NCBI RefSeq assembly: GCF_026240635.1
Contig: NZ_CP110848.1
Location: 2,420,501-2,484,500, forward strand
Length of the DNA: 64,000 nucleotides
Source of the DNA: Trichothermofontia sichuanensis B231
Lineage (GTDB): Bacteria > Cyanobacteriota > Cyanobacteriia > B231
Reading direction: 5' to 3'
The position numbers and the translations under genes are program-made. Of the stretch, positions 30,843-35,474 are shown piece by piece (the first letter of the stretch is position 1; each line of letters begins with the position of its first letter). The notes beneath the pieces were generated by a model that saw nothing but the letters and a program-made list of their open reading frames with translations, did not search any database and was not told where the DNA came from.

Positions 30843-30926
30843 CTGATGAGGGGTTCGGGGAGCGATAAGTCCCGCGCTGTACCCGTAGCAGCGTCGGGAG
30901 GATGTCACTCAACCGGGAGGAGAGCT

Positions 30927-31685
30927 ATGCCTACGAAGGTGATTGCGGCCACGCTCTTGTGTGATCGGAAGGTGCGATCGCAGTTAGTCGCTATTCCCGC
31001 TATGCTCAAAATTGAGGGCCTCGATCGACTCTATATCAACATTGAAAGTAACCTGCGGGGGCAGAAGTTTGAGGCGGCCTATCGACCTCTACGGGATTTT
31101 CTGCGAGCGGGGACCTCAGTGCCGGTGGATGTGGACATCTGGTCCTGGGAGAGCACTTGGCGACAACAACCCACCTATGACCAGGATCAACGCCGCCTGG
31201 ATGCCATTGTGATCGCCCGTAATATGGCTCGTGCTTATATGCTCCGGACGGATGCCACCCATCTTCTCTTTATTGATGCGGATGTGATTGTGTCGCCCGA
31301 TGGTCTGCAAAAGTTGCTGGCGCTGGATCATCCCGTTTGTGGGGGCTTGGTACCCGGTCGGGGTGCCCACGGTCATGTCTATTATGTATTTGGCCCCCGG
31401 CGATCGGTGCCAGAACACCCGGAAGTGATTGAGTGTAGCCACGGTACCTGTGGTTATATGCTGATCCGGCGGGATGTGCTGAGTACCCTGGCATTTCGAT
31501 TTGGGGCATCCCGTGAGACACCGGGTAAGGCGCTGTCGGAAGATCCGGCGTTTTGTTCCGATGCGTTTCTCAATGGGTTTGGTCGCTACTGGATTCACAC
31601 GGGCGTGAAGGCAGCCCATTGGGATGATCCCCAAGATCCCTTGGTGGCGGCAATGGCTGCGAAGGATGAGGAGATTCCGCTGTAG
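30927..31685 (+). CDS. Glycosyltransferase, Anp1/GT2-like
   Basis: A 252-residue soluble glycosyltransferase of GT-A type. The sugar-nucleotide region is HLLFIDADVIVSPDGLQKLL with a DxD-like DAD, preceded by AIVIARNMARAYML, and followed by HPVCGGLVPGRG and CGYMLIRRDVLSTLAFRF. SEDPAFCSDA provides a possible catalytic acidic cluster. The ATG at 30927 has GGGAGGAGAG directly upstream. Its last 116 bases are overlapped antisense by the DUF29 gene, and a degenerate copy of those bases exists at 32232-32349. Confidence 0.8.
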   Translation: MPTKVIAATLLCDRKVRSQLVAIPAMLKIEGLDRLYINIESNLRGQKFEAAYRPLRDFLRAGTSVPVDVDIWSWESTWRQQPTYDQDQRRLDAIVIARNMARAYMLRTDATHLLFIDADVIVSPDGLQKLLALDHPVCGGLVPGRGAHGHVYYVFGPRRSVPEHPEVIECSHGTCGYMLIRRDVLSTLAFRFGASRETPGKALSEDPAFCSDAFLNGFGRYWIHTGVKAAHWDDPQDPLVAAMAAKDEEIPL

Positions 31686-32178
31686 GGGCGGCGGGGGAGG
31701 ATAGCGATGCGGATGGCCAGGGCAGCCAGTCTTCATCCAGGGCTTGTTCCAGGGTAAAGTCTGGCTCTTGGGGAATGAGTATTGCACTTAAATCGCTAGC
31801 ATCTAGAAATAGCTTTCTACCATTTTTGTATTGTTTGGCAAAAATATCCTGCAAGAATGCTTTCAAGCTTGGACTGGTTTCTAATTCTGCTTGGATTTGC
31901 AGTCGAAAATTTCGCACTTCTAACTTCCAACCTCTAAAGCACATGTCTCGTTCAGCGTCCCAATACTTGATTTTGAGCAGATGCTCACACAGCCGCATGA
32001 GATAGCTCGAAATTGCCTGTTTTTGGCTTCTACCCAAGCTTTCAATCTCCTCGATCAAGTTTTCCAAATCCAGACTGCTGAAATTCTGTGCTTTCAATTG
32101 AGCAACCGTCTGCGCCAACCAAAGTTGGTAGTCAGTATCGTATAACGAGGTAGGTCTAGCTTGCATTTGAGGTTCCAT
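31570..32178 (-). CDS. DUF29 family protein with antisense-derived tail
   Basis: A 202-residue protein whose first 155 residues are a DUF29 domain: SLYDTDYQLWLAQTVAQLKA, LENLIEEIESLGRSQKQAIS, LMRLCEHLLKIKYW and a closing FTLEQALDEDWLPWP, where members of the family normally end. The remaining 45 or so residues, rich in Pro and Ser, are read from the opposite strand of the glycosyltransferase 3' end and resemble the tail of the kinase at 32241. DUF29 function is unknown; the genes are common in cyanobacteria and often multicopy. Confidence 0.85.
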   Translation of the reverse strand: MEPQMQARPTSLYDTDYQLWLAQTVAQLKAQNFSSLDLENLIEEIESLGRSQKQAISSYLMRLCEHLLKIKYWDAERDMCFRGWKLEVRNFRLQIQAELETSPSLKAFLQDIFAKQYKNGRKLFLDASDLSAILIPQEPDFTLEQALDEDWLPWPSASLSSPAAPTAESPHPSQPLPPPRDLGDHPNGLPSRPCESSSDQTH

Positions 32179-32231: not shown

Positions 32232-32349
32232 GTTCTCGGTTTAGTCGCTACTCGATTCACACGGGAGTGAAAGTGACCCCTTGACATGATTCCCAAGCTC
32301 CCTTAGAGGTGGAGATGGCTGCGAAGGATGGGAAGATCTCGATCTAGGG
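32232..32349 (+). pseudogene. Degenerate copy of the glycosyltransferase 3' end
   Basis: About 118 bases matching 31565-31687, for example GTCGCTACT-GATTCACACGGG and ATGGCTGCGAAGGATG, with several substitutions, a 4-base gap and in-frame stops. It lies in direct orientation to the intact end, so the DUF29 gene is bracketed by two direct copies. On the other strand it encodes the last 35 or so residues of the hybrid kinase. Confidence 0.9.
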
Positions 32350-35300
32350 AATTTAGGAGTAGCTTGAGTAACCGTTTCCGATTGGATTGATTCCGTTGTT
32401 GTCACCTGATCCAGCAATGAGAGGATTTGATCAAAGCGGAAAATGCTGGCTAAATGCTCAAGTCCCGCCGCTAGTCCTGATTGCTCAGAGGGAAGCTCTG
32501 CCAGAAGTTCAAAGATATGATCATCATTACATTGAATAGTGGCCTGTCGTAGGGCCATCAACCACGAGATTGGCATGGTTGCCAGCATCTCTGGTGTAAT
32601 CGCCGCCAACGAGACGGCGGCAGGGGAGGGGAGGACCTCATCAGCATAACGATACTGGAGGTTTAAATATTGTTGCATTTTGGCGAACAGGTCGGTCGCT
32701 CGGAATGGCTTGCGGAGCATATCGTTACACCCTGCAGCCAGGATCGTGGCTTTATTTTCCTCAAAAACTGTGGCGGTGATAGCAATGATCACGGTTGGGG
32801 GTAGCCCGCGATCGCGTTCCGCTGCCCGAATCCGACGAGTGGCTTCGTAGCCATCCAGCCTAGGCATCCGCATATCCATCCAGATGAGATCTGGTCGCCA
32901 CGTTTCCCAAATTTCCAGAGCGGCTTCGCCATCAGCAGCCTCCCGCAGGTCTAACCCCAAAGGAGCTAGGAGATCCTGAAGCAGTAGCCGGTTTACGGGA
33001 TGATCTTCGACAATCAGAATGCGATAGCGGGGTTGATTGGGAGCCAGTCCAATCACGTTGCCTGTGGGCAGCATGGGGGATTGGGGTTCAACCCCAACAA
33101 TGGGTTTAGCTAACACGGTAAAGGCAAACCGGGTCCCTTGTCCCAGGACACTCGCAACTGTTAACTCGCCGCCCATCAAATGGACGTATTGCTGACACAG
33201 GGGTAAGCCCAGGCCAGTCCCCTGCGCGGCTCTCAAACCCGATTGAGCCTGATGGAAAGGCTGAAAGATTTTTTCTAACTCTTCCGGTGCGATACCCATC
33301 CCCGTATCCACCACGCTGAATTCCAGGGCAATTGCCTCAGCATCCTGGGGGGTGTCCGGCGGGCCCAATTGTCTAACCTCTAATTCAATCTTGCCAACTT
33401 CAGTAAATTTCAGACTATTCCCTAGGAGATTGATCAAGACTTGGCGCAGCTTCCCCTGATCTGCCTCAATGTAGGTGGGCACTTCTGGGGCTAGGGTGAG
33501 TTGCAAGGTCAACCCTTTACTCTGGGCCTTTAACCAAAACAGATCTTGGACTTCTTGCAAAAGGCGAGGCAGGCTAAAGGCTTCTGTCTGAAGACGCATT
33601 TGACCTGCCTCAATTTTGGATATTTCCAAAACGTTATTAATGAGTTCTAACAGATAATTGCCACTGTTATTAATAATCTCTATATACTGGCGGTGATGGT
33701 TCAATAAATTGGTGTCATTATGGAGAAGCTCAGTGAATCCCAGGATGGCATTGAGGGGCGTGCGTAGCTCATGACTCATGCTGGCCAGAAATTCACTTTT
33801 GGCCTGGTTGGCGCGATCGGCGGCCTCTTTAGCCACCTTTAATGCCTGGGCTTGCTGCCGGGTTTGCTGGAATAGTTCTGCCTGTTGAATGGCCACCCCT
33901 AACTGGGTGCCAATGCGGGCAACCGTCTGACATTCCTCCGGTTGCCAAGCGCGGGGGCCCGTGTTCTGATAACAGGCGAGGAGCCCCCAGAGGCGTTGCT
34001 CCTGGCCAATATAGATGGGCGCGATCAGATAGGCATGGGCTTGTAGCGTTTCTAATAGCTCGATGTAGCAGGCACTAAAGTCACGGCTGTAGATGTCATT
34101 GACGCATAAATAGTCGATGCCCTGGGTATACATCCCCCCCTGGTTGTCCTGTAGGTAGGTGTCGCGGATGAGGGTAGGATTATCGGCGAGAAGGCGGACG
34201 GTGCAGCGATTGGCTTGCAGTAGGCTAGTCTGCCAAGGTAGGGGCTCGCCAGGGGTACCCGCCGGTAACAACAGCGATCGCCAACCCGCAGCCACCGCTT
34301 CTGCAATCACCTGCCCACTCCAGTCGGGGTTGAAGCGATAGGTAATGACGCGATCGCAGGCGATTACCTGCCGCAGTTCTTGGGTTGTGGTATAAAAAAT
34401 CGTTTCCAGATCCAGACTTTGCCGCATACGCTGGATCACACGAGTCGTGGCCTGTTCCCATTGGGCCACCTGGGTTAACCGAATGTTGGCCCGCCTCAGG
34501 TCAGCCGTGCGTTCCTTCACCCGCTGCTCCATTTCTGTATAGGCTTGGCGGAGGGCTAAGTCAGCCTTGCGTCGTTGGAGTTCTGCTGCCGCTTTGGCCG
34601 CAAAAATTGTCATGATAGCCTCCGCTTCCTGGGGATGCGCCAGCGGCTGATCGTGGGCAATGCAGAGCAGCCCCAGGGGATGTCCCTGGCTATCTAGCAC
34701 CGGTACGCCCAAGTAGCTAGTGATCCCCATCACTCTCAGTAGATTTGCCTGGGGGAAGATCGCTTGAACTGCATTGGGAAAATAACAACTCTGGCCAGAC
34801 TCTACGACCCGGCCACAAGGATTTGCTTGCGTCGATATTTCAAGATTGGGTGCTAATGCCCCATCACTCCACACCGCCAGCGAACGCAGCATGGTCGGGG
34901 AGCCGAATACCTCCCAAATAAAGGCATGGCGTACCCCTAGGGCTTCAGCTAAATGCTGCACTAAGGCCGGGAAAAATGCCTCACCGGTGACCGGGGCTGT
35001 CCTCTCCAGCAGGCTGTGTAGGGTTTGCTGGGCCTGTCGACGGGCCACGATCTCTTGCTGAAGTTGGTGGTTAAGTTCCGTGAGTTCTTGGGGCGATCGC
35101 AGGGCTGGAAATTGCGGCATCCACTCCAAGAGTTTAAAAGCCGTGAAGACCGATACCAAGGCTGTGAAGGCTCGTTCCAATCCCGATAGCCAGTAATTGG
35201 GAAACCATAGCGTCCAGATATCCAATACATGGCCCACCCCACAGACCAGGATAAACGTCGCAAACAGCAGGAACACGGTCGTCAAAGGTGTTTGCCGCTG

Positions 35301-35474
35301 CTTGGTGACAAAGTACACCAACATAGCCGGGATGGAGAAATAGGCGATCGCGATGCATAAATTGCTGGCAACATGTAACCCAACCAGGGGAGTTTGCCAG
35401 AGATAACAATGACCATGCGGCATATACGGGTTACCTGATAAAAATATCAAGTACAGCCACTCATTGATAAGCAT
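32241..35474 (-). CDS. Hybrid histidine kinase with ethylene-receptor-like membrane domain and two GAF domains
   Basis: A 1077-residue sensor. Residues 25-115 form three membrane helices of the plant ETR1 ethylene-binding type: IAIAYFSIP (41-49) and VCGVGH, whose C78 and H82 correspond to the copper ligands C65/H69 of ETR1. The essential D25 of ETR1 is N38 here. A GAF domain spans about 155-300 and a coiled coil 300-345. A second GAF spans about 350-535 and contains FSACYIELLE, where C469 sits at the usual bilin cysteine of cyanobacteriochromes but is followed by Tyr instead of His. HisKA has H568 (MSHELRTP), the ATPase has DTGMGIAPEE and GTGLGLPLCQ, and REC has D867 (WMDMRMPRLDG). The 35-residue tail is read from a degenerate antisense gene copy. 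Related in layout to Synechocystis SynEtr1/UirS but with a built-in receiver. Confidence 0.88.
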   Translation of the reverse strand: MLINEWLYLIFLSGNPYMPHGHCYLWQTPLVGLHVASNLCIAIAYFSIPAMLVYFVTKQRQTPLTTVFLLFATFILVCGVGHVLDIWTLWFPNYWLSGLERAFTALVSVFTAFKLLEWMPQFPALRSPQELTELNHQLQQEIVARRQAQQTLHSLLERTAPVTGEAFFPALVQHLAEALGVRHAFIWEVFGSPTMLRSLAVWSDGALAPNLEISTQANPCGRVVESGQSCYFPNAVQAIFPQANLLRVMGITSYLGVPVLDSQGHPLGLLCIAHDQPLAHPQEAEAIMTIFAAKAAAELQRRKADLALRQAYTEMEQRVKERTADLRRANIRLTQVAQWEQATTRVIQRMRQSLDLETIFYTTTQELRQVIACDRVITYRFNPDWSGQVIAEAVAAGWRSLLLPAGTPGEPLPWQTSLLQANRCTVRLLADNPTLIRDTYLQDNQGGMYTQGIDYLCVNDIYSRDFSACYIELLETLQAHAYLIAPIYIGQEQRLWGLLACYQNTGPRAWQPEECQTVARIGTQLGVAIQQAELFQQTRQQAQALKVAKEAADRANQAKSEFLASMSHELRTPLNAILGFTELLHNDTNLLNHHRQYIEIINNSGNYLLELINNVLEISKIEAGQMRLQTEAFSLPRLLQEVQDLFWLKAQSKGLTLQLTLAPEVPTYIEADQGKLRQVLINLLGNSLKFTEVGKIELEVRQLGPPDTPQDAEAIALEFSVVDTGMGIAPEELEKIFQPFHQAQSGLRAAQGTGLGLPLCQQYVHLMGGELTVASVLGQGTRFAFTVLAKPIVGVEPQSPMLPTGNVIGLAPNQPRYRILIVEDHPVNRLLLQDLLAPLGLDLREAADGEAALEIWETWRPDLIWMDMRMPRLDGYEATRRIRAAERDRGLPPTVIIAITATVFEENKATILAAGCNDMLRKPFRATDLFAKMQQYLNLQYRYADEVLPSPAAVSLAAITPEMLATMPISWLMALRQATIQCNDDHIFELLAELPSEQSGLAAGLEHLASIFRFDQILSLLDQVTTTESIQSETVTQATPKFPRSRSSHPSQPSPPLRELGNHVKGSLSLPCESSSD

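What the first reader, a model, noticed from the sequence alone, without database searches (positions are those of the whole stretch)
32241..35474. Ethylene-receptor-like hybrid kinase with the key Asp changed to Asn and a bilin-type GAF
Spacing from N38 to Y45, I48, P49, C78 and H82 is exactly that of D25, Y32, I35, P36, C65 and H69 in ETR1; only the Asp is changed. D25 substitutions abolish ethylene binding in ETR1, so the domain may keep copper but sense something else or with different affinity. The second GAF has C469 at the chromophore position of cyanobacteriochromes with Tyr instead of His following. A C-terminal receiver is attached, unlike SynEtr1. It may combine a gas or copper sensor with a light sensor.
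Basis: partly seen in the sequence, partly recalled or inferred. Interest (0 to 1): 0.7.

Follow-up and report, generated by a model that had tools for sequence, protein, structure and literature searches.

The report
Cyanobacterial ethylene-receptor-like, light-sensing hybrid kinase
This cyanobacterial membrane protein joins an ethylene-receptor-like sensor, carrying a rare natural change known from the plant receptor to weaken ethylene binding about 100-fold without destroying function, to a two-cysteine near-UV/violet light sensor on one signalling kinase; it is a new version of a known kind of dual gas-and-light receptor, not a new type of system.

Summary
The ORF at 32241-35474 lies on the minus strand and encodes a 1077-aa protein: ETR1_N membrane domain, two GAF domains, histidine kinase, receiver. 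N38 sits exactly at ETR1 Asp25, and every other ethylene-binding residue checked is kept.

The interpretation needs correcting. Asn at this position is a recurrent natural variant: 15 of 227 distinct domains pooled, about 3% in a class-wide sample, with at least 3-4 independent changes. In ETR1 the same Asp-to-Asn change leaves a functional receptor with about 100-fold lower affinity (PMC13012798). Altered affinity is therefore the best reading, not loss of binding.

All 30 orthologues keep an insertion-loop Cys, the DTYL-motif Asp and a canonical Cys-Tyr: the insert-Cys cyanobacteriochrome pattern. An orthologue (L009) matches the published residue numbers of UG2/Mbl3738g2, a proven 381/556-nm photosensor. 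All 47 bilin-type GAFs found on ETR-domain proteins here carry a second Cys.

Verdict: a new variant of the UirS/SynEtr1 kind.

The parts
32241..35474 (-). Hybrid histidine kinase gene, 1077 aa: ETR1_N membrane domain - GAF1 - GAF2 - HisKA/HATPase - receiver - conserved C-terminal segment
35106..35429 (-). ETR1-type transmembrane domain (aa 16-123), three predicted membrane helices
   Evidence: Pfam PF25487 E 4.8e-34; AlphaFold2 pLDDT 85 with three long helices
35361..35363 (-). Codon of N38 (ETR1 Asp25 position), AAT
35241..35243 (-). C78 (ETR1 Cys65, Cu(I) ligand)
   Evidence: kept in 226 of 227 homologues
35229..35231 (-). H82 (ETR1 His69, Cu(I) ligand)
   Evidence: kept in 227 of 227 homologues
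35172..35174 (-). R101 (ETR1 Lys91 position, proposed salt-bridge partner of Asp25)
   Evidence: alignment
34584..34979 (-). GAF1 (aa 166-297), no canonical bilin cysteine
   Evidence: Pfam GAF_2; alignment
33888..34412 (-). GAF2 (aa 355-529), insert-Cys cyanobacteriochrome type
34203..34205 (-). C424, insertion-loop second Cys (CTVR = CXXR)
   Evidence: invariant in 30 of 30 orthologues
34152..34163 (-). D438-L441, DTYL motif in place of DXCF
34065..34070 (-). C469-Y470, canonical chromophore Cys followed by Tyr
   Evidence: invariant in 30 of 30 orthologues
33114..33803 (-). HisKA and HATPase_c (aa 558-787), phospho-acceptor H568
32676..33020 (-). Receiver domain (aa 819-933), phospho-acceptor D867
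32400..32612 (-). C-terminal segment (aa 955-1025) shared with orthologues
32238..32349 (.). Diverged copy (79%) of the 112-nt repeat at 31576-31687; encodes the kinase's lineage-specific tail in antisense

Best explanation
A membrane-bound, dual-input hybrid histidine kinase of the UirS/SynEtr1 kind. The three-helix ETR1-type domain binds Cu(I) through C78 and H82 and senses ethylene (or a similar small olefin) with affinity lowered by Asn at the Asp25 position. GAF2 covalently carries phycocyanobilin on C469 and forms a light-breakable second thioether with C424, giving a near-UV/violet-absorbing dark state and a green-to-orange photoproduct. Both inputs set autophosphorylation of H568; phosphate passes to D867 and then to a separate response regulator, which in relatives is encoded directly downstream. 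Shown here: the domains, residues, conservation and gene neighbourhood of relatives. Inferred: copper and ethylene binding, bilin binding and colour, signal flow and partner.
For: Domain architecture. Cu ligands and the pocket residues at I35, I62 and S98 are invariant or nearly so in 227 domains, including all 15 Asn forms, across several independent Asp-Asn changes. ETR1 with Asp-to-Asn is functional with ~100-fold reduced affinity (PMC13012798). GAF2: C424, D438, C469, Y470 invariant in 30 of 30 orthologues; insertion-Cys to Asp spacing 14 and to canonical Cys 45 in nearly all. L009, an ETR1_N-GAF-PAS-GAF-kinase protein, has L525, Y537, C569, D583, Y585, L586, L622: the same numbers and letters as UG2/Mbl3738g2, a proven PCB-binding 381/556-nm photosensor. 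GAF2 model matches AnPixJg2 (TM-score 0.88 by target). The genome has a bilin reductase. A REC or REC-HK gene lies directly downstream in 16 of 23 orthologue loci examined.
Against: No binding or spectral data for this protein. R101 replaces Lys91, so any Asp-Lys bridge is doubly altered. The membrane domain of this protein (and of the Arthrospira Asn form) is somewhat less conserved than expected from the rest of the protein, though inside the range of Asp forms. The downstream partner gene is not adjacent in this genome. The L009 = UG2 link is inferred from residue numbers, not from a sequence comparison.
Confidence: 0.6

Rival explanations
1. The Asn domain no longer responds to ethylene at physiological levels; it stays copper-loaded and reports copper, redox state or another small ligand, while GAF2 senses light.
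For: Asp25 of ETR1 and its equivalent in AzoEtr1 matter for binding and function (PMC11819568); R101 replaces Lys91; Cu ligands remain conserved.
Against: Asp-to-Asn in ETR1 keeps ethylene function at lower affinity. Residues needed for ethylene binding besides the copper ligands (Y32, I35, P36, I62) are kept in all 15 Asn forms.
Confidence: 0.2
2. The membrane domain has lost ligand sensing and is only an anchor and dimerisation device for a light-regulated kinase.
For: Slightly faster evolution of the membrane domain in this lineage; lack of the neighbouring regulator gene here.
Against: Copper ligands and pocket residues are intact; an anchor would not need C78 and H82.
Confidence: 0.13
3. 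GAF2 is a bilin-free cyanobacteriochrome relative, and the kinase is not light-regulated.
For: Tyr instead of His after the canonical Cys; the Trp of red/green types is replaced.
Against: Both cysteines and the DTYL Asp are invariant in 30 orthologues. L009 with the same Cys-Tyr matches UG2 at every published position.
Confidence: 0.05
4. N38 is a sequencing or assembly error in this genome.
For: It differs from Asp by one base (AAT vs GAT), and no conspecific genome was available to check.
Against: The same Asn is found in many independent assemblies, including three separate lineages of the orthologue group; the genome is closed and 99.76% complete.
Confidence: 0.02

Closest known systems
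UirS / SynEtr1 / PixA (Slr1212, Synechocystis PCC 6803)
   Same: ETR-type membrane domain plus a two-Cys UV/green cyanobacteriochrome on a histidine kinase; ethylene and UV-A inputs shown experimentally (PMC5812497, PMC6682694)
   Different: UirS has a dual-linked PVB chromophore (DXCF type, from my own knowledge) and is a classic two-component kinase; here the bilin GAF is insert-Cys type with Cys-Tyr, there are two GAFs, and a receiver is attached. Asn replaces the binding Asp.
UG2, Mbl3738g2 of Microcoleus IPPAS B353
   Same: Insert-Cys GAF with the same Cys-to-Asp spacing (14), DTYL motif and Leu at helix 4; L009, an ETR-domain orthologue, carries all its published residues at the same numbers
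   Different: 46% identity between GAF2 here and that of L009; the beta-2 residue is Val389 here rather than Tyr537. The paper held does not mention an ethylene-receptor domain.
Arabidopsis ETR1
   Same: Membrane domain, GAF, kinase, receiver order; Cu ligands and pocket residues
   Different: Asn and Arg at the Asp25 and Lys91 positions; an additional photosensory GAF; bacterial hybrid kinase
GeiEtr2 (Geitlerinema PCC 7105)
   Same: ETR domain, GAF, kinase and C-terminal receiver in one protein of about 1000 aa (PMC6682694)
   Different: Has PAS/PAC between the membrane domain and GAF and keeps all seven binding residues including Asp

Membership tests
Bacterial ethylene receptor (ETR1/SynEtr1 type) | ETR1_N transmembrane domain | tested here: met
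   PF25487 E 4.8e-34, above cut-off; three helices in the model
Bacterial ethylene receptor (ETR1/SynEtr1 type) | Cu(I) ligands Cys65 and His69 | tested here: met
   C78 and H82
Bacterial ethylene receptor (ETR1/SynEtr1 type) | All seven residues required for ethylene binding in ETR1 present | tested here: not met
   Y32, I35, P36, I62, C65, H69 are kept, Asp25 is Asn; Asn is known to be tolerated in ETR1 with lower affinity
Bacterial ethylene receptor (ETR1/SynEtr1 type) | Saturable, copper-dependent ethylene binding | not testable with these tools
   needs a 14C-ethylene binding assay
Insert-Cys cyanobacteriochrome | Bilin-type GAF fold with canonical Cys | tested here: met
   C469, invariant in 30 of 30; structural match to AnPixJg2 and NpR6012g4
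Insert-Cys cyanobacteriochrome | Second Cys in an insertion loop, CXXR/K-like | tested here: met
   C424 in CTVR; Cys invariant in 30 of 30, the only loop position so conserved
Insert-Cys cyanobacteriochrome | DTYL in place of DXCF with conserved Asp and Tyr | tested here: met
   D438-T-Y440-L441; same spacing as UG2
Insert-Cys cyanobacteriochrome | PCB binding and reversible second thioether | not testable with these tools
   only inferred from UG2
DXCF cyanobacteriochrome | Cys in the Asp-X-Cys-Phe motif | tested here: not met
   DTYL, not DXCF
Hybrid histidine kinase | Phospho-acceptor His, ATPase domain and receiver Asp | tested here: met
   H568, HATPase_c, D867

The most novel reading that the evidence does not exclude
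ETR-type gas sensors in cyanobacteria are systematically coupled to two-Cys (short-wavelength) cyanobacteriochromes, and this coupling arose in at least two photoreceptor subfamilies (DXCF and insert-Cys). In the insert-Cys family some lineages, including this one, have repeatedly retuned the gas sensor by Asp-to-Asn, making a light-gated receptor for high ethylene or another olefin.
Probability: 0.3. Interest if true: 0.6.

Novelty: new variant of a known kind. Interest (0 to 1): 0.42.

Why it matters
Natural Asn receptors test in nature what was done to ETR1 in the laboratory: whether lowering ethylene affinity is a used evolutionary dial. The bilin GAF assignment gives a second, easily measured input in the same protein, so cross-talk between light and gas could be measured directly. 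If L009 is Mbl3738, an already characterised near-UV photosensor would prove to sit on an ethylene-receptor-like kinase, which the paper held here does not mention.

Tried and rejected
Asp25-Lys91 co-variation: Asn forms more often lack Lys at position 91 (8 of 15 vs 51 of 212, raw Fisher p 0.027), but on the tree the effect cannot be distinguished from shared ancestry, so I do not claim it. Relaxed selection on the membrane domain of Asn lineages: weak and inside the range of Asp forms. Partner regulator in the window's genome: many REC and REC-HK proteins match, none adjacent, so no partner is named. Solved relatives of the membrane domain: none found by fold search. Key papers not held: Azhar 2023, Aman 2025, Lacey and Binder 2016, the 2015 Microcoleus survey; their content is taken from citing papers where possible. 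My recollection of the Azhar abstract (Asn receptor functional, Asn variants exist in nature) agrees with the review but was not read. One search used a wrong Pfam accession (BKACE instead of the bilin reductase) and is ignored; one search is the right one.

Full report
CHECK. The ORF at 32241-35474 is real and lies on the minus strand. It encodes 1077 aa: ETR1_N (aa 30-123), GAF (166-297), GAF (355-529), HisKA, HATPase_c and Response_reg, all above Pfam cut-offs. This is the only ETR1_N protein found in the 4.44-Mb closed genome, which is cyanobacterial by its relatives.

MEMBRANE DOMAIN. Aligned with ETR1, the checked binding residues are kept (Y32, I35, P36, I62, C65, H69, also S98 and P110), but Asp25 is N38 and Lys91 is R101. 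In 227 distinct domains pooled from all loci, Asp occurs 212 times and Asn 15 times; C65 is kept in 226, and H69, I35, I62 and S98 in all 227. The pooled set is enriched for relatives of this protein. In a class-wide sample, 105 of 194 genomes carry the domain, and 5 of the roughly 150 best-scoring places that I inspected have Asn, about 3%. A pattern search had found Asn forms in 7 of 386 genomes of the phylum. On a tree of full-length orthologues the Asn needs three changes, all forced by well-supported branches: this protein; Stenomitos plus Tildeniella; Arthrospira. On the domain tree it needs eight, at least four of them forced. The nearest full-length relatives, such as Leptolyngbya PCC 6406 (60% identical), have Asp.

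WHAT ASN MEANS. A 2026 review states that Asp-to-Asn in ETR1 gives a functional receptor with about 100-fold reduced affinity, that natural variants exist, and that the Asp forms a salt bridge to a conserved Lys (PMC13012798). Another paper states that mutation of D25 eliminates binding in ETR1 and that the D35A form of the Azospirillum receptor is non-functional (PMC11819568). In this clade the Lys position is often Arg or Gln even when Asp is present, so Lys91 is not constant here. Asn forms more often lack Lys, but this is not separable from ancestry.

LIGHT DOMAIN. GAF2 resembles cyanobacteriochromes by sequence (best PDB match 6bhn, NpR6012g4, E 6.4e-50) and by predicted fold (AnPixJg2, TM-score 0.88 by target). 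Between aa 403 and 437 it has an insertion that the model leaves disordered. In 30 orthologues the only invariant position of that loop is C424; D438, C469 and Y470 are also invariant, Y440 and L441 occur in 28. These are the published marks of insert-Cys cyanobacteriochromes: second Cys in a loop with a loose CXXR/K motif, and DTYL in place of DXCF (PMC5240096). The Cys-to-Asp spacing of 14 is that of UG2 (C569-D583).

LINK TO A CHARACTERISED PHOTOSENSOR. Locus L009, an ETR1_N-GAF-PAS-GAF-HisKA protein, has its insertion Cys at residue 569 counted from its Met, with L525, Y537, D583, Y585, L586 and L622: every UG2 residue number and letter quoted in the paper. Its bilin GAF is the second GAF, as 'g2' requires. 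I infer that UG2 (Mbl3738g2) belongs to an ETR-domain kinase of this same family; the paper does not say so, and I could not compare sequences. UG2 binds phycocyanobilin and switches between 381 and 556 nm. GAF2 here is 46% identical to the L009 domain. It has Val389 at the beta-2 position by my alignment; UG2 Y537V red-shifts both states, so I predict violet and orange-shifted peaks. The genome has a bilin reductase.

A PATTERN. Of 132 ETR-domain proteins examined, 47 bilin-type GAFs (canonical Cys in context) were found, and all 47 have a second Cys: 31 insert-Cys with Cys-Tyr, 15 DXCF with Cys-His, and one ESCF variant (the script's count lists L085 under DXCF because its insertion Cys reads DHCI). 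None is a single-Cys red/green type. The sample leans towards relatives of this protein, so this is a lead rather than a law.

SURROUNDINGS. In 16 of 23 orthologue loci a same-strand gene encoding a receiver, or a receiver plus kinase, follows directly, which suggests the phosphorelay target. Next to this gene there is none: a DUF29 gene follows. The kinase's last ~36 residues come from a 112-nt diverged repeat of the neighbouring gene's 3' end; the genome holds only these two copies.

CONCLUSION. The best reading is a dual-input kinase of the UirS/SynEtr1 kind with an insert-Cys light sensor and an ethylene sensor of lowered affinity. Ligand binding, colour and signal flow are inferred, not shown.

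Noticed in passing
31576-31687 and 32238-32349: A 112-nt direct repeat, 79% identical, present only twice in the genome; both copies underlie the antisense 3' ends of minus-strand genes (the DUF29 gene and the kinase), and one is the 3' end of the plus-strand gene 30846-31685.
   Followed up: yes
30846-31685: 279-aa plus-strand ORF without a Pfam match at E 0.001; a DADV stretch and general look suggest a glycosyltransferase (impression only).
   Followed up: no
L039:7104-8393, L049:6247-7749 and similar: Orthologues are followed by a REC gene or a REC-HK gene, some by two of them in a row (L046, L053); a conserved signalling pair absent beside the window's gene.
   Followed up: partly
L033, L034, L035, L037: A set of shorter (about 550 aa) ETR_N proteins that all carry Asn at the Asp25 position and Gly before the Cu-ligand His; architecture not determined.
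   Followed up: partly
L013, L045, L068: His at the ETR1 Lys91 position occurs only in Asn forms in this sample (3 of 15, 0 of 212 Asp forms).
   Followed up: partly
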